From assembly GCA_026014745.1 (NCBI GenBank), contig JAOZHS010000002.1, positions 744,001 through 808,000 on the forward strand: a DNA stretch of 64,000 bases. The letters are read 5' to 3'. Source of the stretch: Candidatus Bathyarchaeota archaeon (GTDB lineage: Archaea; Thermoproteota; Bathyarchaeia; Bathyarchaeales; Bathycorpusculaceae). The notes beneath the pieces were generated by a model that saw nothing but the letters and a program-made list of their open reading frames with translations, made no database searches and was not told where the DNA came from. Both the position numbers and the translations under genes were made by a program. Below are positions 4,827 through 51,537 of this stretch, one piece after another; position 1 is the stretch's first letter; each line of letters begins with the position of its first letter.

Positions 4827-4946
4827 ATGAAAGGCAAAGTTGTTTTCACCCTTATTTTGGCTGTTGCCTCATTTAGCGTTATCTTTTCTGTTGCTGATCG
4901 CTGCTTCCTTCACCAATCTATTTGGGGTCTATTTGGATCCTATTAG
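4827..4946 (+). pseudogene. Truncated signal-peptide-like frame running into repeat copy 1
   Basis: 39 codons from ATG. The first ~23 residues are a clean signal-peptide pattern (Met-Lys-Gly-Lys then a hydrophobic run), after which the frame enters repeat copy 1 and stops at TAG. It may be the 5' end of a secreted-protein gene whose rest was lost when the repeat arrived, or chance. No clear ribosome site precedes it. The +1 frame over the same bases carries the peptide pattern shared with the other repeat copies. Confidence 0.25.
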
Positions 4947-5040
4947 TGGTTCTATGCAGAAACCTATAGGGGGTCTACTTTCCTAAGGGGGGTAGGTCAC
5001 TAATGGTGCAGAAACAGCCTAAACTATGTTAAAAACCAAG
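4916..5040 (-). repeat. Dispersed intergenic repeat, copy 1 (long form)
   Basis: Read on the minus strand this matches copies at 8812-8915 and 51264-51355. The 50-bp core (TGCATAGAACCACTAATAGG and flanks) is shared, but here it is split by an extra 19 bp (4964-4982) that is itself a degenerate copy of the adjacent CTACCCCCCTTAGG motif, so the core spans 4930-4998. Looser similarity (AACATAG, GTTTCTGC, ATTAGTGACC) continues outward on the 5040 side. It lies inverted relative to copy 2, the pair bracketing the PP-loop/cobT/cobS/cobY block. Confidence 0.85.
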
Positions 5041-5165
5041 TTTCCCTGCCTCACTGAAAATAGAAATACCGCTGTCAAACTCATTTAGCTACATAATTGT
5101 TTCAGGGCGTAGCCAACAAACCATTTTATCCCCCTCAAATCATAAAACCCAAGGAGCGATAGCAA

Positions 5166-5336
5166 ATAACAACCTCTTCTCAAGCTAAAGAAAAAGAAAA
5201 CCCCCAACCAGCGGCGTTTCTTAGTCCCCAAGCTACTGCCTATGCCAGCTTAACTATCTACAACAATATTGTCATTAACGTTAGTTTGACCTCCAAAAAA
5301 GCCGAGGACCGCCCAGAAGCATCTAAACCGTCTTAA
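5166..5336 (+). CDS. Possible 56-residue protein with non-standard ATA start
   Basis: A strong Shine-Dalgarno AAGGAG (5151-5156) is followed 9 bases later by ATA at 5166 and an open frame of 56 codons ending in TAA. The product is Gln/Pro/Ser-rich at both ends with a hydrophobic centre ('YASLTIYNNIVINVSL'). No ATG, GTG or TTG is in frame at the expected distance, so it is either a gene initiated at ATA, a gene that lost its ATG, or chance. I recognise no family. Confidence 0.3.
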   Translation: MTTSSQAKEKENPQPAAFLSPQATAYASLTIYNNIVINVSLTSKKAEDRPEASKPS

Positions 5337-5593
5337 TGGTTGTGTGCTGGGTTGTTTTATTGCCTGATTTCTTGCGTTTTACCTTTGGTGTTTAGTTGGC
5401 TGGGATTTCCGTAAGCCTTATATGAAAAGCATGGATAAACCATCCAACTCAGGGGCTCTACTTTGCAAAACACCAAGAAAACCCACAATGTTCCCTTCAA
5501 AGTTTTATCCAACGGCGGGTTAACTAAATGTTTGGCAAGTAAAACCTTATTTGAGTGTTTAACTGTTCCTAACAGTGTTTGGAGGAAAATAAG

Positions 5594-6262
5594 ATGAAAG
5601 TTGTTGCTTCATGGAGCGGCGGCAAAGACAGCGCCTACGCATATTACCTAGCAAAACAAGAAGGCCACGAAATCCTGAGCTTTCTTACTATGATGATGAG
5701 TGAATCCAAATCAAACTTCCACATGATACCTGCTGGCATACTTGACGCCCAAGCCAAAGCCATCGGAATCCCCCTAATCAAAAAAACCACCTCCCCAGAA
5801 ACCTACGAAGCCGATTTCAAAGCCGTCCTGCGCGAATGCAAAGCCAAAGGCGCCGAAGCCTTAGTCACAGGCGACATCTACGAAGTCGCAGGCCACGAAG
5901 AAGGTTGGCTTGGACGAGTCCTCAAAGAAGTCGGCTTAGCCGCAGTCAAGCCACTTTGGATGGGCGACACCAAACTAATCTATCAATACTACCTAAAATC
6001 GGGCTTCAAAGCAACAGTGGTACGCACCAACCGCGACCTCAGCCTCGACTGGCTTGGCCGCGTCTTGGACCAAAAATTCTACGATGACATCTTAAAGCTT
6101 CCCGGCGTAGACCCCTGCGGCGAAGGCGGCGAATACCACACGGTCATCACCGACGGACCCGGCTTCACACAAAAAGTCGAACTCGTCGAGTCTGAAAAGA
6201 AACGCTTAGATAATGGCTTTGGGTACTTAGAAATCAAACAGTATAAAGTAACTCCAAAGTAA
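5594..6262 (+). CDS. PP-loop ATPase of the diphthine-ammonia ligase (Dph6/MJ0570) family
   Basis: 222 residues from ATG at 5594, chosen because GGAGG at 5581-5585 is 8 bases upstream; an earlier TTG would overlap that site. The N-terminal 'ASWSGGKDSAYAYYLA' is the PP-loop ATP-pyrophosphatase signature, and 'GDPCGEGGEYHT'-type residues near 175-190 ('DPCGEGGEYHTVITDGP') are typical of the Dph6/MJ0570 family, which amidates diphthine on elongation factor 2. It lies 12 bp before cobT and probably in the same transcript. That could mean an adenylating or amidating role in corrinoid metabolism instead, but the sequence only supports the family. Confidence 0.82.
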   Translation: MKVVASWSGGKDSAYAYYLAKQEGHEILSFLTMMMSESKSNFHMIPAGILDAQAKAIGIPLIKKTTSPETYEADFKAVLRECKAKGAEALVTGDIYEVAGHEEGWLGRVLKEVGLAAVKPLWMGDTKLIYQYYLKSGFKATVVRTNRDLSLDWLGRVLDQKFYDDILKLPGVDPCGEGGEYHTVITDGPGFTQKVELVESEKKRLDNGFGYLEIKQYKVTPK

Positions 6263-6274
6263 GGCTGAACCCCG

Positions 6275-7363
6275 ATGGATGTCATATTTGCAAATAACGA
6301 GTTAAAGGCGAAAGCCTTCCTCCAAGAAATCGAAGGCAAAAACCCCCTTTTCATCGCAACCATCGCCACCACCGAAACCGGCAAAATCCCCGGTCTCTCA
6401 GCGGCAGGCGCAAACCCCGACTTCACCGACTTCACCCCACCCGCAGACGCCGAACTCCTCCTTTTAGGAAAATGCAGAAGCATCCGCGGCGTCCCCATCA
6501 CCCCCGACGGCATCCCCACACCCGCACTCATAACCACCTCCGCACTCCACTTAGCCGACATACCCGTCGTAGTGGTTAATGGTGGCGTTAAAGTCCAACC
6601 CCAAATCCCCTACATCGACGTCAACGGCAGCCCCGGACGCGACATCCGAAGCGGCGACTCCGTCGACAACGTCGAAGAAGTCATCGAACGCAGCAAAGTC
6701 ATCGGCGAACAACTCGCCAAAACAGCCGATTACCTCGTCATAGGCGAAAGCATCCCCGGCGGAACCACCACCGCCCTTGGCGTACTCTCAGCTTTGGGAG
6801 TAGATGCGCAAGGCAAAGTCAGCAGCACGCTCCCCCTAAACCCTCACAGCCTCAAAGCCGAAGTCGTCGCCGCAGGACTCAAAGCGGCAGGAGAAAAATT
6901 CGGTAGCCTCAAAGCCAACCCCATCAAAGCAGTTTCAGCTGTGGGCGACCCCATGATGGCGGCGCTGGCAGGTCTGGTCATAGGCGGTTCACGTCAAGCC
7001 CCAATTCTGATGGCAGGCGGCACCCAGATGACTGCGGTTTTAGCTGTGATAAACGCGCTTGAACCCAAGGCGCTGTGCAACGTCGCCGTCGGCACGACCC
7101 GCTGGGTGGCTAAAGACAAAAACTCTGACATCTGCGGCATCGTGCGCCAATTCTGTGACGTCCCCATCTTGGCGGCAGACCTAGATTTTGGGCCCTCTGC
7201 GTTTCCAGGTCTACAAATCTACGAAACTGGTCTCGTTAAGGAGGGGGTTGGTGCTGGTGGCGCTTCGATTGCGGCTATGGCCAAGACTGGCGGCGCAGTA
7301 ACCAAGGGTATCCTTCTTAAGGAGATAGAGCGTAATTATGCTCAATTAATGAGCATAAAGTGA
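6275..7363 (+). CDS. cobT: Nicotinate-nucleotide:dimethylbenzimidazole phosphoribosyltransferase-like CobT
   Basis: 362 residues matching the archaeal CobT type. Glycine-rich motifs include 'GESIPGGTTTALGVL' (about 155-170), 'VGDPMMAALAGLVIGG' (about 228-243) and a late 'GVGAGGASIAAMA'. The enzyme activates the lower-ligand base to its alpha-ribotide for attachment to the corrin nucleotide loop. It is followed 6 bp later by cobS and then overlapping cobY, so three consecutive lower-ligand steps are encoded together. The natural base substrate cannot be read from sequence; archaeal members often handle bases other than dimethylbenzimidazole. Confidence 0.87.
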   Translation: MDVIFANNELKAKAFLQEIEGKNPLFIATIATTETGKIPGLSAAGANPDFTDFTPPADAELLLLGKCRSIRGVPITPDGIPTPALITTSALHLADIPVVVVNGGVKVQPQIPYIDVNGSPGRDIRSGDSVDNVEEVIERSKVIGEQLAKTADYLVIGESIPGGTTTALGVLSALGVDAQGKVSSTLPLNPHSLKAEVVAAGLKAAGEKFGSLKANPIKAVSAVGDPMMAALAGLVIGGSRQAPILMAGGTQMTAVLAVINALEPKALCNVAVGTTRWVAKDKNSDICGIVRQFCDVPILAADLDFGPSAFPGLQIYETGLVKEGVGAGGASIAAMAKTGGAVTKGILLKEIERNYAQLMSIK

Positions 7364-7369
7364 CGCGGC

Positions 7370-8155
7370 TTGGCGATAAAACAACTTAAGAATTTGCTTT
7401 CTTTCTTAACCGTTTTCCCAGTCTCCATGGACGAAAACCTGTTTACAGACTGCGCGCGCAACATGTGGGTTTTTCCGCTGGTCGGCGCGTTTTTGGGTTT
7501 GTTAGCGGGTTTGTTCGGCTGGGTTGCCTATTATTTTCTGCCTTCCCTAGTGGTGGGCGCTATTGCTTTGGCTTTGTTGCTTTGGATGACCGGGCTGCAT
7601 CACACTGATGGACTGCTGGATTTCGGCGACGGCGTCATGGTACATGGCTCTGCGGAGAAAAAAATTGAGGTTATGCATGACCAACTCACAGGTGCAGGCG
7701 CCATCGGGCTCACAATGATGACGTATTTGATTACTGCCTTCGCGTTTGCAGGATACGGTCAAGTCGTCAATTATGGTGGCTTCTTTTTTGTTCCCCTGAT
7801 TTTCCCCGCCCTAATCATGGTTGAGTTGGGGGCGAAGCTGGCGATGGTTGTGGCAGCGTGGGCAGGCAAATCCGTCCATGAAGGCATGAACTCCCCGTTC
7901 CTTGCAGTAATGCATGGACCCAACGGCAACTGGCGACTATTAGCAGCTATTGCGGTTTCAGCGATAATTGCTGTGCCACTGCTCGGTTGGATGGGCCTCT
8001 TTGCTATCGTAGCGGCAGTTTTCACGGGGTTTGTGATGGTTGTCGTGGCACATCGTCACTTTAACGGCGTTACAGGCGACGTGTTTGGCGCTACCGACGA
8101 AATAACCCGCATGGTCTGTGCCGTTGTGATCTTGGCGGTGGCCACATGGCTATAA
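7370..8155 (+). CDS. cobS: Adenosylcobinamide-GDP ribazoletransferase (cobalamin synthase)
   Basis: 261 residues of an integral membrane protein with about six to seven helices. 'LHHTDGLLDFGDGVM' (about 78-92) is the Asp-rich CobS signature that binds metal and GDP-cobinamide, and 'HFNGVTGDVFGATDE' (about 226-240) is the second conserved motif. It joins GDP-cobinamide to alpha-ribazole or its phosphate at the membrane. The start is TTG at 7370; the upstream GTG at 7360 is out of frame. Its end overlaps cobY by 10 bp. Confidence 0.92.
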   Translation: MAIKQLKNLLSFLTVFPVSMDENLFTDCARNMWVFPLVGAFLGLLAGLFGWVAYYFLPSLVVGAIALALLLWMTGLHHTDGLLDFGDGVMVHGSAEKKIEVMHDQLTGAGAIGLTMMTYLITAFAFAGYGQVVNYGGFFFVPLIFPALIMVELGAKLAMVVAAWAGKSVHEGMNSPFLAVMHGPNGNWRLLAAIAVSAIIAVPLLGWMGLFAIVAAVFTGFVMVVVAHRHFNGVTGDVFGATDEITRMVCAVVILAVATWL

Positions 8156-8772: not shown

Positions 8773-8811
8773 CCCCGCTGATAAAGACATCTGCCCTTCC
8801 TTCTTTCTACA

Positions 8812-8915
8812 GGATTCCAACATACGTTTGGGCTTGTTTTGTGCCAATAGTGACCTACCCCTCTTAGGTTTCTGCATAGAACCACTAATAGGATCCAAAT
8901 AGACGCCAAATAGGT
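8812..8915 (+). repeat. Dispersed intergenic repeat, copy 2
   Basis: The core at 8852-8901 matches copy 3 (51306-51355) at 49 of 50 positions. The upstream part (CCAACATACGTTTGGGCTTG, TGCCAATAGTGACC) is a looser match to the other copies. A further ~25 bp downstream (AGACGCCAAATAGGTT) matches copy 1 but not copy 3. It sits between convergent cobY and the amidohydrolase, inverted relative to copy 1. Confidence 0.85.
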
Positions 8916-8985
8916 TCGATAAACAGCAGAGAAAGCGATGATTAGCAATTGCCAGCGCAATACATTCCGCCGCTATCAGGGCAGG

Positions 8986-10590: not shown

Positions 10591-10592
10591 CC

Positions 10593-13211: not shown

Positions 13212-13364
13212 AAAAACAGTTTATGAAGTTGTTGGGGTATAAACCTTACGTTAAACCGCCACCCACAGCAACAAAGCGAAGTCTAAGGCTAAAACCCGTG
13301 TTTGCAGTAATTTATTAATCTCACAACTGCTCTAGAACATCAACTCTGCAGCCTGTGTGACTTC

Positions 13365-15554: not shown

Positions 15555-15561
15555 ACAAAAC

Positions 15562-27562: not shown

Positions 27563-30283
27563 CTATGGGTGTTTCCGGAGCATTATCATTGCTAGAACTG
27601 CACCGACTAAGACAACAGCGATTATGACACCGACTATTGCTGGAATGAAATACATATCAGCCATAGATTGGGGTGCCTCTGTTGGAGCTGGAGTTGATGC
27701 GGGTCCATCGCCTACTGTTAGGTAGGTTGATGATGCTGAGGGTCCGTAGGAGTTTGTGCCTGCGAATTCTGCAACGATTTGGTAGGTACCTGGAACTTCG
27801 GGTTGGTATGCGAGGCCATAGTTGCCGTACATGTCGCTTGTTGTTGTGCCTATGTTGATCCAGTTGCCGTTGGGGTCGATTGCGTGTAATGTTACGTCGA
27901 CACCGTATGCGTCTGTTGGTTGTGGTCGCTGGTGGAACATGTATTCCATCCAAGCATCCATGCATGCATCTGCAATTGCTGGAGTGCCCTTAAGTGAGAA
28001 GTCAAGACTGCCAGTGGAGGTTTGTCTGCCGTATTGTGTTTGGTCTGTGACAGTGCCGGTTAGGGTTACGCTATTTCCTAATGTTGGAACGATCTGTGGA
28101 GCTGAAACTGTAGTTGCGCTGGGTCCTTTACCGAAGCAGTAGAGTTGCATATCATGACAGTCAACGTATAGTAATCGTCCGTCTGCTAAGATTGGAGCTG
28201 TTGTTGGCCAGCCTGTTAGACCCCAGACTTGTTGTCCGCTGGTTACGTTGACACACCAAATCATAGCGTCACGTCGAATTGGGTTGTTGACAGAGTGTTC
28301 GCTGGAGTAGAGGTAGAGTAAACCGTCGCCTGAAAGGAAGCCGTAGGATGTTGGTGTATACTGATAGGAGGTTTCGTCTAGTCCGACCATTGGAGCTGTC
28401 CAGTTCCAAAGGAAATCGCCAGTCTTAGCGTCGAATGCGCGAACGACACCACTGTAGCCACCGCAGTCAATGAACATGTTATTGTAGCAGATACCAGTGT
28501 AACCACCATAGAATTGGAACTGTTCCGCTTTGGGTGCAGTCCAAAGTTGGCTACCTGTGTTGAGGTCATAGATAAAGTAGCGTAGAGTCATCGGGTCATA
28601 GTACCAGAATATGCCTGCTTGATCGTTTACACCACCGAAGGCTGTGTTTTTGCTGCTGTATTGCTCTTGTTGACCGTATGAGTCGCCAGCTGTTGGGGGA
28701 GCAGTGAAGTTATAGTTCTTGATTATTGCGCCCACTTCGCCTACTTTGAGACTTACTATGACAACAGTTCCGGGAACGCTAACAGTGCCGTTATTAGAGC
28801 CTGCATAGATGATTATTATTTTATCGTCAGGAATAACTTGCCGTAAGCTAATACCGCTTTTTAGCGGGAAGTTAGGTAAGCTGACGTTTGTTGAGTAGCC
28901 GTACTTGCCATCGTAGGTTCGGTTAAGTTCAGGTCGCCACATCCAGTTGACGTTGCTGCCTGACCCACTGTCATGTATAACATAGTTAGGCCACATGATT
29001 GCTTGTGAAGTATTCCAGCATTGTAGATACCAATTAGGTGCTGATGAAGTTCCCAGATTGACAATGTTGTATCTGAGTATGCTTCCGTCAGTTCCTACTG
29101 CAGAGGTACCACTTCCTGTGTTGTTTATGCTGCAGATGTAGCTACCGCTAAAGTCATCATACATATCCCATGTGTTAGATTTTCCAGTACTGGTTACCCA
29201 GTAGTAGCCAAGAGTGCCGTGTTGGTTAGGAGAGTCATAGGTGTATACTTGTCCGAATGCGGGTGCGCCGTAGGGTATGTTGCCTGTGCTTGAGAACATG
29301 CCGCCTGCACCTGTAACTGGACCTGTGGTGTTGCGGAAGTAGATTGTTTCACCAGTGTAGAGATCAACGCAGTAGAAGCCTTCACGTGGGTTAGTGTTGA
29401 CTGTGTAGTAGACTTTACCGTTTAGAACAATTGATGGACCGCCAAATTGTTCGTATGATTGGCCGCTGTAGTAAGAGTTGTCAGCGCTAGAAGTGTTAAC
29501 AGTTGAGACACCGCCTGCAAGACCACCGTTAAAGTATTGTCGAGTCCACAGAACGTGTGAACTAGCGGGACCTATGCTGTAGGGGTCATATCTACCGTTG
29601 TTGCCGTATTGGTTAAGTTCACTTGCGCCGAGCCATTGACCCATCGTGTATTTACTCCAACCTCTGTTAGCGTCGTAGACTGGTCGTGTCCAATAGTCGT
29701 TTGGAAGAGGAGTTTCATTGTAGCGTGCTACTTGTTCTTCTGTGACGGTAAGGGTTACAGTTTCGCTTACGCCCTTTTCAAAGACTACACCGACTGGAGA
29801 CCATCCAGCTGGAATGTTGTTGGGATTGGGTGGAGAACCTGAAGGCCACCAACCAACACCACCGGGGGACATTGCGCCTCTGCTGGCGCCACCGTCAATG
29901 ACGTGCTCCCGCATGATAGCTTGGATGATATATTCGCCAGTTGCTTCTGGTGTAAAGTATGTGAATGCTGCGCCGACGGGGTCAGATTCGATGTTTGAGA
30001 TTGTTTCGTTTGTGCCATCTGGCTTTATGACGTTAACGTCGAAGTAGAAGCGGTCACCATAGTCGCCTATAGCAGTGGGTGGGAGCTTGTCACACCAGAA
30101 AGCGATGATGACGTTTTGACCCACACCGATTGTGTTAGGAGCAACTGAAACGTAGACCATATCTGCGTACCTGTTCTGGTAGGCTGCACTAGCTGAAGGC
30201 ATGAAAACGACTGAAGCTGCAATTGATGCCAATAATGTCAAAGCAAGCAAAGAAGCAAATGTTTTATTTTTTACAATTTTCAT
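27563..30283 (-). CDS. Large secreted Ig/PQQ-like propeller surface protein, paralogue 3
   Basis: 906 residues: a signal peptide ending near Ala-33, an Ig-like domain with 'PDGTNETISNIESDPVGAA' (about 85-105), a Gly/Trp-rich patch, a PQQ-type propeller core with 'NPREGFYCVDLYTGETIYF' blades, a second Ig-like domain after 'GKGPSATTVSAP' that contains a conserved 'AWMEYMFHQRP' insert, and a C-terminal helix with Lys/Arg. It should sit on the outer face of the membrane with many N-glycosylation sequons. It is the last of three tandem paralogues, each with its own leader. Nearly identical stretches with the 30570 gene indicate recent duplication or conversion. A binding or S-layer-associated role is inferred. 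Confidence 0.78.
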   Translation of the reverse strand: MKIVKNKTFASLLALTLLASIAASVVFMPSASAAYQNRYADMVYVSVAPNTIGVGQNVIIAFWCDKLPPTAIGDYGDRFYFDVNVIKPDGTNETISNIESDPVGAAFTYFTPEATGEYIIQAIMREHVIDGGASRGAMSPGGVGWWPSGSPPNPNNIPAGWSPVGVVFEKGVSETVTLTVTEEQVARYNETPLPNDYWTRPVYDANRGWSKYTMGQWLGASELNQYGNNGRYDPYSIGPASSHVLWTRQYFNGGLAGGVSTVNTSSADNSYYSGQSYEQFGGPSIVLNGKVYYTVNTNPREGFYCVDLYTGETIYFRNTTGPVTGAGGMFSSTGNIPYGAPAFGQVYTYDSPNQHGTLGYYWVTSTGKSNTWDMYDDFSGSYICSINNTGSGTSAVGTDGSILRYNIVNLGTSSAPNWYLQCWNTSQAIMWPNYVIHDSGSGSNVNWMWRPELNRTYDGKYGYSTNVSLPNFPLKSGISLRQVIPDDKIIIIYAGSNNGTVSVPGTVVIVSLKVGEVGAIIKNYNFTAPPTAGDSYGQQEQYSSKNTAFGGVNDQAGIFWYYDPMTLRYFIYDLNTGSQLWTAPKAEQFQFYGGYTGICYNNMFIDCGGYSGVVRAFDAKTGDFLWNWTAPMVGLDETSYQYTPTSYGFLSGDGLLYLYSSEHSVNNPIRRDAMIWCVNVTSGQQVWGLTGWPTTAPILADGRLLYVDCHDMQLYCFGKGPSATTVSAPQIVPTLGNSVTLTGTVTDQTQYGRQTSTGSLDFSLKGTPAIADACMDAWMEYMFHQRPQPTDAYGVDVTLHAIDPNGNWINIGTTTSDMYGNYGLAYQPEVPGTYQIVAEFAGTNSYGPSASSTYLTVGDGPASTPAPTEAPQSMADMYFIPAIVGVIIAVVLVGAVLAMIMLRKHP

Positions 30284-30311
30284 TTTCTCAGTTTCCTATT
30301 AAGTTTTTTTT

Positions 30312-30336
30312 CTGAACGATTCAAATAATCGGTCAG
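30312..30336. promoter_or_regulatory. Inverted repeat in the leader of the 27563-30283 gene
   Basis: Ten-base arms (CTGAACGATT and AATCGGTCAG, one mismatch) around a five-base loop lie 29-53 bp upstream of the start. They could act as an operator or an RNA hairpin. The ribosome-site leader AGGAAACTGAGAAAATG is nearly shared with the 33762-36536 paralogue. Confidence 0.35.
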
Positions 30337-30569
30337 TAAAGCAGCTTTATCAGCGCCAGTCCTTTATTAAACTTGTGTAAAAAAATAGCGATTGATGATA
30401 AAATAGAGTATAAAGCGCGAATTTATTCTAGAAATTTACGGTATGAATCAAAAATTCCCAAAAAAATTGTACTTTCGAAAAATTTAAAAAGCGATGACTG
30501 CGAAGCAGGCGACTAAAAGGGGTTAACAAAAAAAATAAAGAAGGGAAGGATTTGATTTTTGTTTGCTGT

Positions 30570-33353
30570 TTATGGACGTTTGCGGACTACCAGTACGATA
30601 ACAACGCCAACTAAGACTATAGTGACGATGATACCGATAACGGCTGGAACGAAGTATAGGTCAGTCATGGATTGTGGTTGTGGTGTTGCTGTTGGAGCGG
30701 TTGTTGCTTCGTTGCCGATTGCTAAGTATGTGGTTCCGAATGATGGGCCGTATGAGTTGGAGCCGTCGAATGTAGCGATGATTTGGTAGGTACCTGGAAC
30801 TTCTGGGGTGTATGTGAAACCGTAGTTGCCTGCTGAGTCGCTGGTTGTGTCGCCGATGTGGACGTAGTTGCCGTTGGGGTCAATGGTATCTAAGCTGACT
30901 GGAACACCGACTGCATCAGAGGGCATTGGTCGCTGGTGGAACATGTATTCCATCCAAGCATCCATGCATGCATCGCCGATTGCTGGAGTGCCCTTAAGTG
31001 AAAAGTCAAGACTGCCAGTGGAGGTACGTCTGCCGTATTGTGTTTGGTCTGTGACAGTGCCTGTGATAACGACACTTGAGCCTAAGGTTGGAACAGTCTG
31101 CGGAGCTGTAACTGTAGTTGCGCTGGGTCCTTTACCGAAGCAGTAGAGTTGCATATCGTGGCAATCAACCACGAGTAGGCGTCCGTCTGCTAAGATTGGA
31201 GAACCGCTTGGCCAATCAGTTAGACCCCAGACTTGTTTACCGCTGGTAACGTTAACACACCAAATCATTGCATCGCGTCGGATTGGGTTGTTGACAGAGT
31301 GTTCGTTTGAGTAGAGGTAGAGTAAACCGTCGCCTGAGAGACAACCGTAGGAAGTGGGTGTATACTGATAGGAGGTTTCGCCTTCGCCGACGCTTGGAGC
31401 TGACCAGTTCCAAAGGAACTCACCAGTTCTTGCGTTAAATGCGCGGACGACACCGCCGTAGTTGCCTGTGTCTATTAGTTGTCCGTTGTAAACAATCAAG
31501 GTACCCATACCGTAGAATTCCATTTGGGGTCCTGCGGGCATGGTCCAGAGTTGTTTACCGTTTGCAAGGTCGTAGATGTAGAAGAGTCTGTTCATAGAGT
31601 CAGTGTACCAGAAGATACCGGCTTGTTCGTTAATGCCTCCGAAAACTGTGCCTTTGCTACTGTATTGCTCGTTCTGTCCGTATGAGTCACTGCAAGTTGC
31701 TGGCGCGGAGAAGTTATAGCTGTATAGGATGCTTCCTACACTTCCAGGTCTTAGGTCGATAGCATATACGCTGCCTGGAAGAGAAGTACTTGCTGTGCCG
31801 TTGTTAACACCCGCGTAGATAACGATGAGTTTATCGTCAGGGATAACCTGTCGAATACTAGTGGTTGAACCTTGAAGTTTAAGGTTGGATAAGCTCACGT
31901 TTGCTGAGAAGCCATAGCGACCGTCGTATGTTTGGTTGAGGTTAGGTCTCCATAGCCAGTTAGTGTTAGTGCCTGAACCGCTGTTGTGGATTACGTAGAA
32001 TGGATACATGATAGCTTGTGTTGTGTTCCATACTTGTAGGTACCATTGCGGGGAGGCTGATGTGCCTAAGTTGACAATGTTGTAGCGCAGTATACTGCCG
32101 TCAACGCCGACTGCGGAGGTTCCTGTTGCGCCTTGAACTACGTTTCGGTTGTCAGAAGTTCGGGTTACTGTCGTTAGGTTACCTATGCTACAGATGTAGC
32201 TACCAGAGAAGTCATCGTACATATCCCAACGTGGACTTGTGTATGATCCGCCAAATCCAGTTGTCCATGTTCCGCCTTCAGTGTTGGTTACCCAGTAGTA
32301 GCCAAGAGTGCCGTGTTGGTTAGGAGAGTCATAAGTTAAGACTTGCCCCATTGAGGGTGCACCTGCAATTATGCGTCCAGTACTTGTTTGTCCAGTGCCT
32401 ATGCCGCCAACGACGCCTGTAGTGTTGCGGAAGTAGATTGTTTCACCAGTGTAGAGATCAACGCACATGAAGCCTTCGCGGGGGTTTGTTTCGACCGTCC
32501 AGTAGATTTTACCGTTTAGAACGATGGATGGACCGCTAAAGCTTTCGTAGGACTGACCGCTGTAGTAAGAGTTGTCAGCGCTAGAAGTGTTTACTGTTGA
32601 GACACCGCCTGCAAGACCACCGTTAAAGTATGGTTTAGTCCATAGAATGTGTGAACTTGCTGGACCTGTGGTGTAGGGGTTGTATTTGTTACCGTTGCCG
32701 TATTGTGCAAGTTCGTTAGCATTCAACCATTGTCCCATAAGGACTGAGGACCAACCTCTGTTTGCATCATAGACGGGGCGAGTCCAGTAGTCGTTTGGAA
32801 GTGGAGTTTCATTGTAGCGTGGTACTGGAGATGAAGTCACGTTGAGGATTTCGTATTGGCTTACAGCGCCTTTAAAGACAATGCCTACGGGGTTAAAGTT
32901 AGCGATTGGTTGACCGGAAGGCCACCATCCTGCACCGCCGGGTGCAACTGCGCCTCTGCTGGCGCCGCCGTCGATGGTGTGGTCTTGCATTATAGCTTGG
33001 ATGACGTAGGTTCCTTCTTGATCGGGTGTGTACATTGTGTAGCCTGCGCCGACGGGGTCAGATTCAATGTCGGAGATAGTTTCGTTTGTTCCGTCAGGTT
33101 TGATGATGTTTACATCAAAAGTCCAACGGTCACCATAGTCGCCTAAGGCGGTTGGTGGGAGTTTGTCACACCAGAAAGTGATGATTACACTTTGACCGGT
33201 GCCGACAGCGTTTGGTGCTAATGCTAGATAGCACATGTCGTCATATTCTGTTCTGGCTGCAGAAACTGAGGGCATAGTAAGGGAGATGGCGATAGATAGC
33301 AGCAAAGTGATGGCGATAAAGGAGGCTAGAGTTTTGTTATTTATTGGTTTCAT
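30570..33353 (-). CDS. Large secreted Ig/PQQ-like propeller surface protein, paralogue 2
   Basis: 927 residues with the same order as its neighbour: signal peptide (1-32), Ig-like domain, propeller with 'NPREGFMCVDLYTGETIYF' and 'TAP'-type blade ends, Ig-like domain with the 'AWMEYMFHQRP' insert, and a C-terminal membrane helix with a short basic tail. Over the insert region (about 30930-31025) it differs from the 27563 gene at only a handful of bases, and the block around 32565-32640 is likewise near-identical. The start has GAGAGG eight bases upstream. No catalytic residues are recognised; ligand or glycan binding at the surface is the working idea. Confidence 0.78.
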   Translation of the reverse strand: MKPINNKTLASFIAITLLLSIAISLTMPSVSAARTEYDDMCYLALAPNAVGTGQSVIITFWCDKLPPTALGDYGDRWTFDVNIIKPDGTNETISDIESDPVGAGYTMYTPDQEGTYVIQAIMQDHTIDGGASRGAVAPGGAGWWPSGQPIANFNPVGIVFKGAVSQYEILNVTSSPVPRYNETPLPNDYWTRPVYDANRGWSSVLMGQWLNANELAQYGNGNKYNPYTTGPASSHILWTKPYFNGGLAGGVSTVNTSSADNSYYSGQSYESFSGPSIVLNGKIYWTVETNPREGFMCVDLYTGETIYFRNTTGVVGGIGTGQTSTGRIIAGAPSMGQVLTYDSPNQHGTLGYYWVTNTEGGTWTTGFGGSYTSPRWDMYDDFSGSYICSIGNLTTVTRTSDNRNVVQGATGTSAVGVDGSILRYNIVNLGTSASPQWYLQVWNTTQAIMYPFYVIHNSGSGTNTNWLWRPNLNQTYDGRYGFSANVSLSNLKLQGSTTSIRQVIPDDKLIVIYAGVNNGTASTSLPGSVYAIDLRPGSVGSILYSYNFSAPATCSDSYGQNEQYSSKGTVFGGINEQAGIFWYTDSMNRLFYIYDLANGKQLWTMPAGPQMEFYGMGTLIVYNGQLIDTGNYGGVVRAFNARTGEFLWNWSAPSVGEGETSYQYTPTSYGCLSGDGLLYLYSNEHSVNNPIRRDAMIWCVNVTSGKQVWGLTDWPSGSPILADGRLLVVDCHDMQLYCFGKGPSATTVTAPQTVPTLGSSVVITGTVTDQTQYGRRTSTGSLDFSLKGTPAIGDACMDAWMEYMFHQRPMPSDAVGVPVSLDTIDPNGNYVHIGDTTSDSAGNYGFTYTPEVPGTYQIIATFDGSNSYGPSFGTTYLAIGNEATTAPTATPQPQSMTDLYFVPAVIGIIVTIVLVGVVIVLVVRKRP

Positions 33354-33370
33354 ATTTTTTCCTCTCGTTT

Positions 33371-33436
33371 TATTGAACGCCTACTAGGTCTATAGTTAGG
33401 GTTCAATAGAGCAGGCGTAACAGCGTTTACGCTTTT
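33371..33436. promoter_or_regulatory. Paired inverted repeats upstream of propeller paralogue 2
   Basis: TATTGAAC (33371-33378) pairs exactly with GTTCAATA (33401-33408), and ACGCCT/AGGCGT offers an alternative pairing (33377-33382 with 33413-33418). AGCGTTTACGCTTT follows at 33422-33435 and recurs at 58408-58421 before another gene. The rest of the 408-bp gap (33437-33761) is A/T-rich with no gene seen. Confidence 0.35.
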
Positions 33437-33761
33437 AAGATTTTCGCACGAAAAATCAAATTTTGAGAAATTATGGGAAAATAAGCCATCATTATGCCAA
33501 AAATTTAGCACATAACGCCATTAATTTCCGAAAAAATCGCATGAATATTTTACATTGGCAATAACACGAAACTCACGGGAGAACCATATCTTGGCGTCGC
33601 CACTAACTGAGAAGGCCATGCAAGGAGCTTATAAATTTTATGTCAAGCAATGTTGAACACGCAAGTTTTTAACAGCTTTTGACAACAATTTTCAAATTAT
33701 TCCAAAATAACATAATGTTTTTTGAAAATCAACAAAAAAAAGAAAAAAGGGTAAGTTATAA

Positions 33762-36536
33762 TCATGGACGCTTTCGAAGCGCCAAAACTATAACAACAGT
33801 AGCAATAGCGATTGCGACGATTATGCTGATTGTTGCGGGCAACAGATACATGTCAGCTACAGAATCGGGTTGCACGGTAGGTTCAGGTGTTTGGGTTGCT
33901 TGCGTTTCACTGACGGTTAGATATGTTGTTGAAGAGGATGGACCATACGAGTTAGAGCCTGCAAAGGTAGCGATAATCTGGTAGATACCAGGAACTTCGG
34001 GCGTATAGGAAAAGCCAAAGTTGCCGCTGCTGTCACTTGTTACGTTGCCGATGTGGACATAGTTGCCGTTGGGGTCAATGGTGTCTAAACTGACTTCAAC
34101 GCCCACTGCATCAGTTGGTTTTGGTCGCTGGTGGAACATGTATTCCATCCAGGAATCCATGCTTGAGTCGCCGATTGCGGGGGTGCCTTTGAGTGAAAAG
34201 TCTAAGTCGCCATTAACGTTGTGCCTACCGTACGCTGACTGGTCAGTAACCGTACCTGTAAGGGTTACAGTTTGGCCTAACATTGGAGAGAGTTGGGGCG
34301 CGGAAACGGTGGTTGCGCTGGGTCCTTTGCCTAAACAGTAGATTTGGTTATCGTGGTTGTCTAGGTATAACATGCGGTTGTCAGAGATTACAACTTTAGA
34401 GAGGGCGTTGTTTGCTGTGTTGGGGTATGCGGTTAGTCGCCAGACTTGTTCGCCGCTGTCTGCATCGATACATATGATTGAGCCGTCGCGTCTAATTGGG
34501 ACTGTTTCACCTGCCCAACCAGTTGAGCCGTGCATGTAGAGGTAGTGTTGTCCAGTTGCAGCGTCGTCTACGAAGAAGACTAAGCTAAGGGGTGTGTATT
34601 CAAGTCCTTGAGTTTCTAGGTTGCCCAAGAAGGGTGCGGTGTAGTTCCAGAGTAAGTCACCGGAGGTTGCATCAAAGCAGTCCAATACACCATAGGAGCC
34701 GTAAGAGTAGGCTTTGCCGTTGTGAACGTTTATGGTCATTCCGTAGAAGGCAAATTGGTTGGGTTCAGTGTAGGTCCAGATCTCTTTGCCAGTTGTGAGG
34801 CTATACATCCACATTTTTCCGGTTACTTTTTCAGTGAACCAGAAGACGTCGTCATCTACTGAAACGCCGCCTAAGGATACGCCTCCGCCGTTGGTTGCGT
34901 TGGGGAAGTTATCTGAGGCTTTTGGCGCGGTGAAGCTGACATCTTTTGTTACAGTTCCCCATGAGCCGGGTGCTAAGCTGTAGAGTCTAACAAAGCCAGG
35001 TATGTTTCCTCTACCGTCGTTTTGTCCGCCGTATGCAACAACGACATGTTTGTCAGGTACAACAGATTGGACAGAGCCGCTGCCGATGCTTGCAACAGAG
35101 ATGTTCATTGTGTAACCATTGAGGCCGTCATAGACTGCACCGTAGTCCGAGGAGGACATGCCAACATTTACTGAGCCGGGTCTCCAGAACCAGTATGCGT
35201 TATCTGAAGTCGCAGTGTTGGGGAGGTTGGTTGTGCCATTAGGGAGTGTTGCTGGGTAAGCTACGCCATAGGAGGGTCTCCACCAGATTGCTTGAGTGGA
35301 GTTCCAAATTTGCATGTAATAGTTGGGGTTAGTTGTGTTTCCTAGGTTCACGAAGTTGAGGTAGCATACGCTTCCGATTACATCTCGGAATTGTGTACCA
35401 GAGGCACCCGTGGAGACGGGCATCATCATGCCGAACCATCCGGGAGCTAATACTGGTTGTCCGTTTACAATCAGGGGTTGGGTTACGTTTGCGATTTTGC
35501 ATATGGATTTTCCAGAGTATCCGTCAAGCATTTCCCATGTTGAGCCCACACTTGTTTTTCCAGCGGGGAGGGTTACGCCTGAGGTTCGCCAGAGGTATGA
35601 GAAACCGCCGTGTTGGTTGGGTGAGTCGTAGTTGAGGACTTGGCCGAACGTGGGTATGGCAGCATTTCCTATGGTGTTGTTTTCGAAGTAGATGGTTTCG
35701 CCTGTGTAGAGGTCGATACAGTACCAGCCCTGTCTTGGTGGGTTCTGTACGGAATAGTATGCTTTGCCTTCTAGGACAACTATGGGACTGGAGAAGCCTT
35801 CGTATGCGATGCCGTTGTAGTAGCTTGTGTCATCGAATCCGCCCATGATACCGCCGGTCCAGTAGGGTGCTGTCCAAAGGATGTGGCTGCTGGCTACGCC
35901 TTGGGTATTAGGGATGCCAGTTGCGCGCATGTTTTCGTAGGAGGGTCCGCCTAACCATTGACCCATTGCGACGTTACCCCATCCACGGTTAGTATCGTAG
36001 ACTGGGCGAGTCCAGTAGTCAGTTGGTAGGGGGGTTTCTTGATAGTGGGATATGGGTTCTTCTTGTACGGTGAAAGTGTTGGGTCTGCTTGTGCTGGGTG
36101 CGTAGATGTCGCCGACATAGATGCTGTTTGTTTGACCAGGTTCGCCAGTTAAGGTTGCACCGGGGAAGCTTGCTTGAACAGTGTAAACGCCTGTTTTGGT
36201 GGGGGTGTAAACGATGAATGCGCCGCCCACTGGGTCGGAGGTTATGGGTCCTTTGGTTTCGTTGTTTCCTTCAGGGTCGGTGATTGTTAAGTAGAACGTC
36301 CAGCGGTCACCCATCGAACCGTATGCTGTGGGTGGGTTAGCGTTTAGGTACATTTGTATGAGGATTTCTTGGCCTACGCCAACTACGGGTTGACTTGGAA
36401 AGACGTAGGTGTACGTGTTGAGGTTATATGCAGGGTTGTGTGCTGTGGCAGGTTGAGTTGTCAAGACAATTGCGAGGGAAGCCACCATGAGGGTGACTAA
36501 AGCTATAGAGCTAGCTTGCTTTTTTGATATATGCAT
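33762..36536 (-). CDS. Large secreted Ig/PQQ-like propeller surface protein, paralogue 1
   Basis: 924 residues from ATG 36536, chosen because AAGGAAACTGAAAAAA precedes it, as in the 27563 paralogue, and a normal signal peptide follows. The longer TTG start at 36593 adds a basic stretch with no such support. It is first in the tandem array and the most divergent: its N-terminal Ig domain has 'GDRWTFYLTITDPEGNNETK', the propeller blades resemble the others, and the C-terminal Ig/'SWMEYMFHQRP'/membrane-helix end is shared. Probably each of the three genes is transcribed from its own promoter, given gaps of 290-410 bp. Confidence 0.78.
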   Translation of the reverse strand: MHISKKQASSIALVTLMVASLAIVLTTQPATAHNPAYNLNTYTYVFPSQPVVGVGQEILIQMYLNANPPTAYGSMGDRWTFYLTITDPEGNNETKGPITSDPVGGAFIVYTPTKTGVYTVQASFPGATLTGEPGQTNSIYVGDIYAPSTSRPNTFTVQEEPISHYQETPLPTDYWTRPVYDTNRGWGNVAMGQWLGGPSYENMRATGIPNTQGVASSHILWTAPYWTGGIMGGFDDTSYYNGIAYEGFSSPIVVLEGKAYYSVQNPPRQGWYCIDLYTGETIYFENNTIGNAAIPTFGQVLNYDSPNQHGGFSYLWRTSGVTLPAGKTSVGSTWEMLDGYSGKSICKIANVTQPLIVNGQPVLAPGWFGMMMPVSTGASGTQFRDVIGSVCYLNFVNLGNTTNPNYYMQIWNSTQAIWWRPSYGVAYPATLPNGTTNLPNTATSDNAYWFWRPGSVNVGMSSSDYGAVYDGLNGYTMNISVASIGSGSVQSVVPDKHVVVAYGGQNDGRGNIPGFVRLYSLAPGSWGTVTKDVSFTAPKASDNFPNATNGGGVSLGGVSVDDDVFWFTEKVTGKMWMYSLTTGKEIWTYTEPNQFAFYGMTINVHNGKAYSYGSYGVLDCFDATSGDLLWNYTAPFLGNLETQGLEYTPLSLVFFVDDAATGQHYLYMHGSTGWAGETVPIRRDGSIICIDADSGEQVWRLTAYPNTANNALSKVVISDNRMLYLDNHDNQIYCLGKGPSATTVSAPQLSPMLGQTVTLTGTVTDQSAYGRHNVNGDLDFSLKGTPAIGDSSMDSWMEYMFHQRPKPTDAVGVEVSLDTIDPNGNYVHIGNVTSDSSGNFGFSYTPEVPGIYQIIATFAGSNSYGPSSSTTYLTVSETQATQTPEPTVQPDSVADMYLLPATISIIVAIAIATVVIVLALRKRP

Positions 36537-36827
36537 TTTTTTCAGTTTCCTTTTCGTTTGCTTGGACAAGGGATAGCTAACTTGCCTTGCCAAACGCTAA
36601 AAATGTCGATGCGTTAGTTTAATAAGTTTTTCCATAAACATCGCATACAAATAAAATAAATTATAAAATACGAACTTTCTTAATAAAAAAGTTTCACAAA
36701 ATCACATTTTTTCAAAAAAGTAACAACTCAACACCAAGAACAGAATCGGCAATGGTGTCTTTACGGAAACTTTATAACATTATCGAGCGGTTTTTACACA
36801 TAAACCAGACAGAGACGAGACCATCAA

Positions 36828-40355: not shown

Positions 40356-40360
40356 TTTAA

Positions 40361-43042: not shown

Positions 43043-43048
43043 ACCATA

Positions 43049-43079: not shown

Positions 43080-43112
43080 AGAGAACCTGATTGTTCTATC
43101 AATAGACCGACT

Positions 43113-47869: not shown

Positions 47870-47941
47870 CCACTCTCTCCTAAGGAAATATGTCTTACTT
47901 ATTGATTATTTGTGAGTCAAAGCTTAAATATGAATTTCGAG

Positions 47942-47949
47942 TATAAAAA
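47942..47949 (+). promoter_or_regulatory. TATA box for the corrinoid/MtrH operon
   Basis: TATAAAAAG is centred about 40 bases before ATG 47985. A short leader with AGGTG (47975-47979) follows. The consensus-like box hints at strong expression. Confidence 0.55.
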
Positions 47950-47984
47950 GCCCAGAGTATCTAAAAAGGAAAAAAGGTGTTTAA

Positions 47985-48410: not shown

Positions 48411-48428
48411 TCCATCAGATGTGGAAAA

Positions 48429-49340
48429 ATGTCCTTTAAATTCCAAACCCAACAAAACATCTATGAGATTGGTAAAGCAAAAATTGGCGGTCAACCAGGA
48501 GAAAATCCAACTTTCCTGATTGGTTCCATCTTTTGGCTAGGCCAAAAAATGGTCCAAGACGCAAACAAAGGCATTTTTGATGCAAAAGCTGCCGAAGAAA
48601 TTATTAACAGATGCCAAACTCAAAGCGACATAACCGGTGTACCATTCGCTCTGGACATTGTCGCAACAACCGAAACAGCATTCGAAAAATACATTGATTT
48701 CGTACCGAAACACACTGAAGCACCACTCATGCTTGACGCAATGAGTCCCAGAACTCGTATGGCAGCAGCGAATCTCGCAAAGAAGATGGGCCTCGCAGAC
48801 AGGTGCCTCTACAACTCTGTCTATAAAGGCGTCACCGATGCTGAACTCGCTAACCTCAAAGAAAGCGGCATCAAAATGTCCATCGTGCTAGCTGATGACC
48901 CCAAAGATACCACCTTAGAAGGCAAGATGAATGTTATCGTTGAAGCGTTAGCATTAGCCGAAAAAGGCGGCATCACCAAACCACTGATCGACACAGCCAT
49001 TCCCGCATTCGAACCAGACATGGGAACCTCTGTGCGCACCATACCAGTCATGAAAGAAAAGTATGGTCACCCTGTAGGCTTAGGCAGCGGCAACGTTGTC
49101 ACAACCATGGGTTGGGTCAAAGCAAACGTCGCAAAAGAATTCCGCAAGGGACCCGTCTGTGCAACCAACACCATCATGCAAATGGCCGGCGCAAACTGGC
49201 TCATGATTGGTCCAGCTGAACAAGCAGAATGGGTATTCCCAGCAGTCGCAGTCACTGACACATACATTGCATCAGCAGCAGCCGACCTCGGAACAAGACC
49301 CCTCGAAGAGACTCATCCAATCTATAAGATGTTCATGTAA
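48429..49340 (+). CDS. mtrH: MtrH-family methyltransferase (tetrahydromethanopterin/folate side)
   Basis: 303 residues of the MtrH family. 'GGQPGENPTFLIGSIFW' near the N-terminus, 'LALDIVATTE'-like strands and 'NVVTTMGWVKANVAKEF' match the TIM-barrel pterin-binding methyltransferases. In methanogens MtrH moves the methyl group between tetrahydromethanopterin and the corrinoid of MtrA. Here the other Mtr subunits are absent and a soluble corrinoid protein is encoded just upstream, the arrangement of methyl-group-assimilating or methyl-oxidising systems in Bathyarchaeia and some bacteria. The pterin used and the upstream methyl donor are unknown. The symbol follows family, not proven function. 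Confidence 0.9.
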   Translation: MSFKFQTQQNIYEIGKAKIGGQPGENPTFLIGSIFWLGQKMVQDANKGIFDAKAAEEIINRCQTQSDITGVPFALDIVATTETAFEKYIDFVPKHTEAPLMLDAMSPRTRMAAANLAKKMGLADRCLYNSVYKGVTDAELANLKESGIKMSIVLADDPKDTTLEGKMNVIVEALALAEKGGITKPLIDTAIPAFEPDMGTSVRTIPVMKEKYGHPVGLGSGNVVTTMGWVKANVAKEFRKGPVCATNTIMQMAGANWLMIGPAEQAEWVFPAVAVTDTYIASAAADLGTRPLEETHPIYKMFM

Positions 49341-49386
49341 AAACATCTTCCTTATTTTTTATTTTAAAAAAATAAAGGAATCTACT

Positions 49387-49788
49387 CTGAAACCTCTCAA
49401 ATGGCTCCTAATAATCGTCGTTTTCACAGCGCTAACCTTACTTGCTACTTATCTTTTGGCGGTTCCAAGCGGCCAAGAATTCTCCGCCAGCCTCATCCCA
49501 CGCTATATCCTTAGCTTTGTGTTCATCTCTTTTCTGCCCGGTTATTGTCTTGTGAATATTTTGTTTGTCGGCAAGAACCAACTGGATATAGTTGAAGAAA
49601 TAGTGCTTTCCGTCGCGTTAAGTTTCGCTTTAGCTGGCTTAATGGGATTATTTTTGGGACTCTCCCCCATAGGCATCAATCTAAACTCGATAGCGGTTTC
49701 CCTGAGCATTCTTGTGTTGACGCTTTCAGTAGTTGCGTTTGTAAGGAAAACAAAAAGCTTAGGAAAGCTTGATGTGCATAGCCCTTAG
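49387..49788 (+). CDS. DUF1616 N-terminal-domain membrane protein, probable CTG start
   Basis: The frame is open from inside mtrH, but the recognisable protein begins about 49387 at CTG, 7 bases after AAAGGAA (49374-49380); no ATG, GTG or TTG lies between that ribosome site and the first helix. The ~133 residues form four helices with 'RYILSFVFISFLPGYCLVNI' and 'LDIVEEIVLSVALSFALAGL', the N-terminal half of DUF1616. The extracellular C-terminal half is missing here and occurs alone at 1826-2347. The last 30 bp overlap the convergent radical SAM gene. A truncated gene or a deliberately split pair are both possible. Confidence 0.6.
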   Translation: MKPLKWLLIIVVFTALTLLATYLLAVPSGQEFSASLIPRYILSFVFISFLPGYCLVNILFVGKNQLDIVEEIVLSVALSFALAGLMGLFLGLSPIGINLNSIAVSLSILVLTLSVVAFVRKTKSLGKLDVHSP

Positions 49789-51144
49789 GGCATATGCCGC
49801 TGAAGTTTTCACTGCAGAAATCCCGTAAGTTCCGCCTTTTCGCATCATCTTAAACACGTAGCCTGGACGTAGATAGAATTGTTGGTAGGCTTTATAGCGG
49901 AGTTCGGCAAGTTTCTCCATGCTAAGCTGCGGGGTCTCAAAAGTGGGACCTGCCGTGTCGAATTTGTCAAAGTCAGTAACACGTAACCAGCCATTTTTGA
50001 TGACCTGCTCATACATGGGTGTACCGGGGTAGGGGGTTGCTACGTAGAAGCCGACGTCGTCGGGGTTGACTTTTTTGACGAAGTTTATGGTGGCTTTGGC
50101 GGTTTCTTCTGTTTCGCCTGGGAAGCCCAAAACGACGTTTGCGATGGTCATTAAGCCGACTTGTTGTGCGGTTTTGAAGGAATCAAGGGTTTGGTCGAGT
50201 TTGATTTTTTTGTGCATTGCGCCAAGGATGGCTTCGGAACCGGATTCAACGCCCATCCATACAGCGATGCAGCCTGCGTCTTTCATGGTTTTTAGCAGTT
50301 CGCGGTCAACCATGTCTACGCGGGTGCCGCAGTCCCACATCATGTTTAGTTTGCGTGTGTGGAGTTCTTCGCAGATTTTTAGGACTCGGTTTCGGTCAAC
50401 TGAGAAGGCGTCGTCGTAGAAGGTGACTTGGTCTACGCCATATTTGTCGTGGACAAGTTGCATTTCGTCGACGACGTTTTTGGCGCTGCGCCAGCGGTAG
50501 CCTCTGCCGAACATGCGCACGGTGCTGCAGAAGTCGCACCAAAACACGCAGCCGCGGCTTGACATGAGGGGGATGAGGATTTTGCCCATGCGTTTGAGGT
50601 TTTCCATTGGCATCAGGTGATGTGCGGGGAAGGGTAGGGCGTCGAGGTCTTGTATGAGTGGGCGGTCTTCGGTGCGGCGGATGGCTCCGTCTTTTTGGCG
50701 ATAGGTTATGCCTAATACGTTTGTTAGGGGTTCGTTGTGTTGGAGTTTTTCTAAAAGTTCAACGAAGGTTGCTTCTCCTTCTCGGCGGACCACGATGTCT
50801 AGGCTTGGGTATTCGTTGAGGGCGTTTTCGTCCCAAAATGTGCCGTGACTGCCGCCCAGCATGGTTGTTGCGTTGGGGTGGAGTTCTTTGGCGATGTCGA
50901 TTAGTTGCATCGCGGACTTGTAAAGCAGAGTCGTTGCGGTGACGCCGACGACTTCGGGGGATTCTTTGCTCATGCGGGCGCGGAAGAGGTCACTGGTTAA
51001 ATGTTCAGCTTGGCAGTCGATGACGCTGATTTCGTGGCCTTCTTTTTCGGCGACTGCAGCCAGATATGCTAGCCCCAAGGGGATGAACGGGGGGTGGGAG
51101 TGGACATGTGGCGGATAGGGAGGATTGATAAGAGTAACTTTCAC
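49759..51144 (-). CDS. B12-binding-domain radical SAM protein
   Basis: 461 residues. 'MKVTLINPPYPP', 'IPLGLAYLAAVAEKEGHEIS', 'VVGVTATTLLYKSA' and 'MLGGSHGTFWDE' mark the cobalamin domain. 'SSRGCVFWCDFCSTVRMFG' gives the SAM-cluster Cys (about 205-212). 'FYDDAFSVDRNRV' and 'DCGTRVDMVDRE' follow. It is the fifth member of the family in the window and sits ~120 bp from dispersed repeat copy 3. It has no obvious partner gene, and its 3' end overlaps the DUF1616 half-gene tail to tail. It is likely a methylase or cyclase for a lipid or other apolar substrate, by family only. Confidence 0.89.
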   Translation of the reverse strand: MKVTLINPPYPPHVHSHPPFIPLGLAYLAAVAEKEGHEISVIDCQAEHLTSDLFRARMSKESPEVVGVTATTLLYKSAMQLIDIAKELHPNATTMLGGSHGTFWDENALNEYPSLDIVVRREGEATFVELLEKLQHNEPLTNVLGITYRQKDGAIRRTEDRPLIQDLDALPFPAHHLMPMENLKRMGKILIPLMSSRGCVFWCDFCSTVRMFGRGYRWRSAKNVVDEMQLVHDKYGVDQVTFYDDAFSVDRNRVLKICEELHTRKLNMMWDCGTRVDMVDRELLKTMKDAGCIAVWMGVESGSEAILGAMHKKIKLDQTLDSFKTAQQVGLMTIANVVLGFPGETEETAKATINFVKKVNPDDVGFYVATPYPGTPMYEQVIKNGWLRVTDFDKFDTAGPTFETPQLSMEKLAELRYKAYQQFYLRPGYVFKMMRKGGTYGISAVKTSAAYALRAMHIKLS

Positions 51145-51537
51145 AGTGTGATACGCCCTTCGTTGGAAGGGTTAGACGTTAAAACGCATTATATAGTTTT
51201 CTCAACAACGCTACACGCCCCGAAATAAGGGAAATCATGCAGAATAACGGTTTTAGCAAAGCACTGGTTTTCAACATACTAATGAGGCGTTTCTGCGTCA
51301 ATACTGACCTACCCCCCTTAGGTTTCTGCATAGAACCACTAATAGGATCCAAATATGTTTTCCAAAGTCCTAAATTACTGAATTTCTTTGCAAACACCAA
51401 AAAGCAGTGCACAGCGATATGCAGTCGGGCACTTGCATAGCCCATTCAGGCGGGGTCGGTCATGTCTCACCTGTCAGCCCAGAGCCCAGCCGCCGCCTAT
51501 AAGCAATTTTGGCAAACAAACAGCATAACAAAAAATA
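51145..51537. other. Intergenic region holding repeat copy 3
   Basis: About 390 bp between two minus-strand genes. Apart from repeat copy 3 it has open frames on both strands (88 codons on the minus strand at 51179-51445), neither with a ribosome site or a recognised product. The minus-strand frame carries the peptide pattern shared by the repeats and probably reflects the repeat itself. Confidence 0.5.
51264..51355 (+). repeat. Dispersed intergenic repeat, copy 3
   Basis: Core 51306-51355 matches copy 2 at 49 of 50 positions and copy 1 apart from its 19-bp insertion. Upstream CTGGTTTTCAACATA and GTTTCTGC match copy 1's flank. Beyond 51356 the similarity ends abruptly, whereas copies 1 and 2 continue. 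The neighbouring genes differ from those around copies 1 and 2, so it is not a simple cobalamin-gene control element. Confidence 0.85.

What the first reader, a model, noticed from the sequence alone, without database searches (positions are those of the whole stretch)
4916..51355. Three-copy dispersed intergenic repeat with a strictly conserved 50-bp core
Copies at 4916-5040 (minus), 8812-8915 (plus) and 51264-51355 (plus) share a core that is 49/50 identical between copies 2 and 3, and in copy 1 is interrupted only by 19 extra bases that look like a degenerate duplication of the neighbouring CTACCCCCCTTAGG. Outside the core the similarity fades (AACATA, GTTTCTGC, AGTGACC), so the core looks constrained while the flanks drift. 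The genes next to the copies and their orientations differ, which argues against a gene-specific riboswitch. It has no terminal transposase. It could be a non-autonomous mobile element, a small RNA gene or a recombination site.
Basis: seen in the sequence. Interest (0 to 1): 0.72.

Follow-up and report, generated by a model that had tools for sequence, protein, structure and literature searches.

The report
Modular dispersed repeat in Bathyarchaeia chromosomes
The three copies in the window belong to a previously unreported (as far as I could search) family of short non-coding DNA repeats that sit between genes at about 60 places along this archaeon's chromosome; the family is shared by part of one archaeal family, looks like a repeat that copies or overwrites itself, and may mark or destabilise chromosome sites.

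Summary
The three copies are real and their 50-bp core is 49-50/50 identical once copy 1's 19-base insert is removed. They are a small part of a large family: at least 61 loci in this 2.7-Mb genome, intergenic and about half in each orientation. Relatives occur in 44 of 91 genomes of the same GTDB family (18 genera). Counts are bimodal: tens of copies, or almost none.

The element is modular: leader, then 1-4 tandem ~61-bp units, then tail, like the pneumococcal BOX element. It shows no conserved RNA structure, no clear terminal inverted repeats, and no Y1/RAYT transposase in this genome.

Copies occupy orthologous intergenic sites across species (upstream of pyrE in seven species, same orientation), yet their sequence follows the host genome rather than the site, so copies are homogenised within each genome. 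Loci are spaced more evenly than chance, and in the closest comparable species pair they coincide with synteny breakpoints.

Best explanation: a BOX/REP-like non-autonomous repeat, spread and homogenised by an unidentified mechanism (0.5). Main rival: dispersed binding sites for a chromosomal protein, possibly origin-box-like (0.3). A structured small RNA is not supported.

The parts
4916..5040 (-). Copy 1, whole. Leader about 4999-5040, unit head 4982-4998, 19-base extra head 4963-4981, rest of unit 4930-4962, start of tail 4916-4929
4963..4981 (-). 19-base insert AAAGTAGACCCCCTATAGG: a second C-rich/CTATAGG unit head; same or similar variant in L034, L028, L093
8812..8851 (+). Copy 2 leader (AACATA...CCAATAGT)
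8852..8901 (+). Copy 2 core unit (type a): GACCTACCCCTCTTAGGTTTCTGCATAGAACCACTAATAGGATCCAAATA
8902..8945 (+). Copy 2 tail (GACGCCAAATAGGTTCGATAAACAGCAGAGAAAGC...), similar to tails of other copies but fading; right end approximate
51264..51305 (+). Copy 3 leader
51306..51355 (+). Copy 3 core unit (type a)
51356..51450 (+). Copy 3 diverged tail, still holding AGCAGTGCACAGCGATATGCAGTCGGGCACTTGCATAGCCC, which recurs in tails of other copies; right end approximate

Best explanation
A large family of modular, non-coding, non-autonomous chromosomal repeats: leader, 1-4 tandem ~61-bp units of a few recurring types, tail. It behaves like BOX/REP repeats of bacteria. Copies were seeded in intergenic DNA long ago and persist at orthologous sites. 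They are homogenised within each genome by copying between loci (ectopic gene conversion, or re-insertion into existing copies), and lineages amplify different modules. The dispersed homology also appears to make loci prone to rearrangement. SHOWN: dispersal, modularity, orthologous sites, within-genome homogenisation, patchy presence, breakpoint association in one species pair. INFERRED: that copying or conversion between loci is the cause, and that an unknown trans-acting enzyme or the recombination machinery does it.
For: At least 61 loci in this genome, half in each orientation, intergenic, in every gene arrangement. Modular arrays with unit spacing mostly about 60-62 bp and unit types a/b/c in different numbers and orders. 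Same site and orientation upstream of pyrE in seven species, with empty sites in eight others whose pyrE promoter is intact; module content differs from species to species. Further shared sites, such as guaA. Nearest neighbour of a unit is in the same genome in 60% of cases against 19% for shuffled labels (maximum 32%); units at orthologous sites resemble their own genome more than their orthologue. G010 has almost no units but about 106 hits of an upstream module that its relative G018 carries in composites. Breakpoints at 8 of 10 mapped G018 loci against 1 of 14 intergenic controls. No conserved RNA structure.
Against: No transposase or recombinase partner was found; Y1_Tnp is absent from this genome and from several other element-rich genomes. 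No clean TIR or target duplication was seen, and no fresh insertion into a gene. The unit is strongly conserved between genera and loci are spaced more evenly than random (CV 0.62 against 0.95, 0 of 5000 simulations), which a purely selfish repeat does not obviously predict.
Confidence: 0.5

Rival explanations
1. The unit is a dispersed binding site for a chromosomal protein (chromosome organisation, segregation or replication control). The reverse strand reads GGTTCTATGCAGAAACC-TAAG-GGGGTAGG, a dyad followed by a G-string, like this genus's own origin recognition boxes upstream of orc1 (TTTTCCAGTAGAAACGTTGGGGTGTG). Orc1/Cdc6 or another protein would bind about 60 evenly spaced sites.
For: Even spacing along the chromosome; long core conserved between genera without RNA structure; TA(G) steps every 11-12 bp and 61-bp unit spacing, i.e. 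on one DNA face (read; 11-bp shifted hits); whole sets absent from some lineages, as if lost together; similarity of unit to local ORBs P 0.003-0.016 by shuffling.
Against: The ORB idea was chosen after looking, P values are modest and the dyad-to-G-string distance differs (4-6 against 3). All 32 genomes have Orc1 genes (two in nearly all) whether or not they have the repeat. The equally conserved right half (CTAATAGGATCCAAATA) has no counterpart in the ORB. Module content turns over freely at orthologous sites.
Confidence: 0.3
2. A classical MITE mobilised by an IS transposase of the host.
For: Copy number, intergenic placement, both orientations; homogenised subfamilies per genome.
Against: No TIR pair in the aligned copies and 3' ends fade at different points; no shared transposase gene beside copies; no Y1_Tnp in the genome; orthologous placement kept across species at 70-90% protein identity. 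Other transposase families were not searched.
Confidence: 0.09
3. A gene family for structured small RNAs, or an RNA regulatory leader.
For: Long conserved core; an upstream imperfect hairpin in some own-genome copies (mean z -0.8 against +0.2 in control).
Against: No consensus structure in units or leader; whole element folds no better than shuffled on either strand; no Rfam match; no fixed position or orientation relative to genes.
Confidence: 0.06
4. Assembly artefact or contaminant sequence.
For: MAG-type genomes; some copies in other genomes lie near contig ends.
Against: Copies with unique flanks across three large contigs; same sites in independently assembled species.
Confidence: 0.01

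Closest known systems
BOX elements of Streptococcus pneumoniae (boxA-boxB(n)-boxC; PMC3049150)
   Same: Short intergenic interspersed repeat; end modules around a variable number of tandem middle modules; about half of insertions are shared between strains; module number varies at a site; no own coding capacity.
   Different: BOX and related repeats form extensive predicted RNA secondary structure; none here. Here orthologous sites are shared between species at 70-80% protein identity, loci are evenly spaced, and units of several types occur in different orders. No sequence relation was tested or claimed.
REP/BIME with RAYT transposase (PMC2817692)
   Same: Tens to hundreds of intergenic copies in both orientations, species-specific variants, composite arrangements; GTAGG is present on the reverse strand of the unit.
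   Different: No conserved palindrome after a GTAG head; Y1_Tnp is absent from this and several element-rich genomes.
Archaeal origin recognition boxes (ORB; PMC4010727)
   Same: GAAAC plus a G-string with an imperfect dyad; repeated units.
   Different: Dispersed over at least 61 loci instead of beside orc1; spacing between dyad and G-string differs; an extra conserved half with no ORB counterpart.
MITEs
   Same: Short, non-coding, multi-copy.
   Different: No TIR, no target duplication, no transposase found.

Membership tests
BOX-type modular repeat | end modules flanking a variable number of tandem middle modules | tested here: met
   leader, 1-4 units, tail
BOX-type modular repeat | stable stem-loop when transcribed | tested here: not met
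   so it is not filed as a BOX element, only as working like one
REP/RAYT | palindrome with GT(A/G)G head | tested here: not met
   GTAGG present, but no consensus pairing in unit or leader
REP/RAYT | cognate Y1 (RAYT) transposase in the genome | tested here: not met
   PF01797: 0 matches in G000, G012, G013, G018, G022, G010
MITE | terminal inverted repeats | tested here: not met
   none evident in aligned copies; ends not exactly mapped
MITE | target-site duplication | tested here: inconclusive
   occupied and empty sites compared, but flanks too diverged for exact ends
ORB (Orc1/Cdc6 site) | sequence match to the genus's own ORBs | tested here: inconclusive
   P 0.003-0.016 against shuffles, post hoc
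ORB (Orc1/Cdc6 site) | binding by Orc1/Cdc6 | not testable with these tools
   needs EMSA or ChIP
Structured ncRNA family | covarying conserved secondary structure | tested here: not met
   0 predicted pairs over 44 units and 58 leaders; no Rfam match in the window

The most novel reading that the evidence does not exclude
The units are an archaeal chromosome-wide set of about 60 evenly spaced, sequence-specific protein sites (possibly derived from origin recognition boxes), maintained as a set by gene conversion and lost as a set when the partner is lost: a dispersed chromosome-organising or replication-control system not described in archaea.
Probability: 0.15. Interest if true: 0.9.

Novelty: new variant of a known kind. 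Interest (0 to 1): 0.6.

Why it matters
Short interspersed repeats are well studied in bacteria, but I found no report of such a family in Bathyarchaeia. This one can be compared across dozens of genomes that either have it or lack it. It combines three features not usually seen together: sites shared between well-separated species, homogenisation within each genome, and even spacing. That makes it possible to ask directly whether such repeats are selfish or organise the chromosome, and whether they drive rearrangement in archaea.

Tried and rejected
Rfam search of the window: no match. RNA folding and consensus structure of units, leader and whole element: nothing; an upstream hairpin in some copies is weak. 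Gene-linked riboswitch or terminator: rejected, since orientations relative to genes are mixed (>E< 31, <E< 22, <E> 21, >E> 16). A protein gene travelling with the element: none shared among flanks. Y1/RAYT partner: absent. Extra Orc1 paralogue as partner: no difference between genomes with and without repeats. Viral origin: no exact hit in viral contigs. Coding: unit lengths vary by 1-2 nt and contain stops. Exact ends and target duplications from the G018/G010 pair: left open, flanks rearranged.

Full report
WHAT IS IN THE WINDOW. The three copies are real. The core GACCTACCCC[C/T]CTTAGGTTTCTGCATAGAACCACTAATAGGATCCAAATA is 49/50 identical between copies 2 and 3. Copy 1 is identical to copy 3 once its 19 extra bases are taken out. 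Those 19 bases are a second unit head and recur in other copies. Copy 2 lies between convergent genes, copy 1 between divergent genes, and copy 3 between two genes on the minus strand.

HOW MANY. The core has 46 hits in the own genome against 0 for the reversed control. A 33-nt core pattern has 47 hits. A 17-nt motif has 117 hits against 2 control hits; some of these 117 are the same unit counted twice, through 11-bp shifted or palindromic matches. Joined into loci, I can list 61. They are 20-24 per Mb on all three contigs and in both orientations. By simple ORF calls they are intergenic; only a few overlap the end of a short ORF.

ANATOMY. An element is a leader (TTTTCAACATGCTAATG...GCGCCAATAGT), one to four units, and a tail (CAAATAGGTTCGTTGAAAGCAAAAGAAAGCA...). 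Units within an array are mostly 60-62 bp apart. Three unit types recur in several species: a (GAACCACTAATAGG), b (GAGTTTCTAATAGG) and c (CTTGGATATTAGG), in different numbers and orders. Near-invariant stretches are CCCC, GTTTC, CA, CTAWTAG and CAAATA. TA(G) recurs every 11-12 bp, read from the consensus; hits shifted by 11 bp show the same. Upstream modules with CCCC...TTATATAAAG belong to longer composites in other species.

NOT A STRUCTURED RNA. RNAalifold predicts no pair for 44 units or 58 leaders. A whole element folds no better than shuffled sequence on either strand (z +0.8 and +0.5). There is no Rfam hit in the window.

DISTRIBUTION. A sequence-only model of the unit finds the family in 44 of 91 genomes of the same GTDB family and in 18 of 33 genera. 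Counts are mostly either tens or near zero, and high counts are limited by the tool's scoring cap. With the 17-nt motif, rich genomes have 56-157 hits and others 0-7. In a class-wide sample of 121 genomes it is abundant only in this family, with 1-6 weak copies in one sister family and none elsewhere. Named hits are all Candidatus Bathyarchaeota MAGs; none was found in the viral collection.

SHARED SITES. The phoU-pyrE intergenic region carries the element in seven species, always in the same orientation, between the phoU stop and the pyrE promoter. Eight other species have an empty site with the promoter intact. Other sites are shared between species too, such as guaA. Presence and absence are interleaved on a PyrE+PhoU tree, which suggests repeated loss of the whole set, or repeated gain.

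HOMOGENISED WITHIN GENOMES. The nearest relative of a unit is in the same genome in 60% of cases against 19% expected. At shared sites the units resemble their own genome more than their orthologue. The other-species loci were fetched with patterns based on this genome's core, so this sample is biased towards similarity between species, which makes the test conservative. G013 copies share a ~110-bp insert at a fixed place, including the copy at the shared pyrE site. So variants move between loci while sites stay.

REARRANGEMENT. G018 and G010 are about 87% identical in DNA where they align. G018 is rich in units, and G010 has three matches in 1.3 Mb. Eight of ten G018 element loci with both flanks mapped are at synteny breakpoints, against 3 of 38 contig windows and 1 of 14 intergenic windows (Fisher P = 2e-5 and 5e-4). 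Controls come from one contig, and misjoins at repeats cannot be fully excluded. G010 instead has about 106 hits of an upstream module, CCACGCGACGTCTCA..CTCCCCTCCCTTATATAAAG, which G018 also carries. Across the genus this module is frequent only in genomes that also have at least a few units.

SPACING. The 61 loci are more evenly spaced than random (CV 0.62 against 0.95, 0 of 5000 simulations). The list may miss a few loci, and the cause could be function, insertion immunity, or loss of close neighbours.

PARTNERS. No gene family accompanies the copies. Y1_Tnp is absent from this genome and from other element-rich ones. All 32 genomes of the genus have Orc1 genes (two in nearly all), whatever their repeat content. 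The units resemble the genus's own ORBs upstream of orc1, but this test was post hoc and modest.

VERDICT. The element works like a BOX- or REP-type interspersed repeat (PMC3049150, PMC2817692) but fails defining features of both (structure, palindrome, RAYT), so I do not file it in either family. I rank 'non-autonomous repeat spread and homogenised by unknown means' first (0.5) and 'dispersed protein-binding site' second (0.3). The even spacing and the conserved core keep the second alive.

Noticed in passing
window 27563-36593 (-): Three consecutive large ORFs (906, 927, 943 aa) are paralogues: 60-89% DNA identity over long stretches (repeats D1-D8, D11, D13).
   Followed up: no
L156:4237-4937 and the same region in L158, L160, L162-L169: Upstream of orc1-1 in all 11 genomes checked there are conserved ORB-like boxes (TTTTCCAGTAGAAACNTTGGGGTGTG; inverted CACCCCTATGTTTCCTCTCGAAG): the likely replication origin of this genus.
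   Followed up: partly
L065, L067, L068, L071, L048 (G013): A ~110-bp insert with inverted ends (GTTTACCGCGACCAT...ATGGTCGCAGTAAA) sits at a fixed place before the leader in several G013 copies: probably another small mobile element that then spread with its host repeat.
   Followed up: partly
G010 contigs C7, C1, C5 (L194-L202, L233-L292): Related sub-element CCACGCGACGTCTCA..CTCCCCTCCCTTATATAAAG, about 106 hits in the genome, without the units; TATA-like end.
   Followed up: partly
L210, L211, L217, L219 (G018): G018 elements have long tails with complementary arms (AACGCA...TGCGTT) flanking the unit; could mark element ends in that subfamily.
   Followed up: no
L020, about 260 bases past the core, in the element's orientation; L029 on the same side: One copy lies about 200 bases upstream of what looks like a 5S rRNA gene; another (L029) lies close to what looks like a tRNA gene. 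Read by eye, not run through a gene finder.
   Followed up: no
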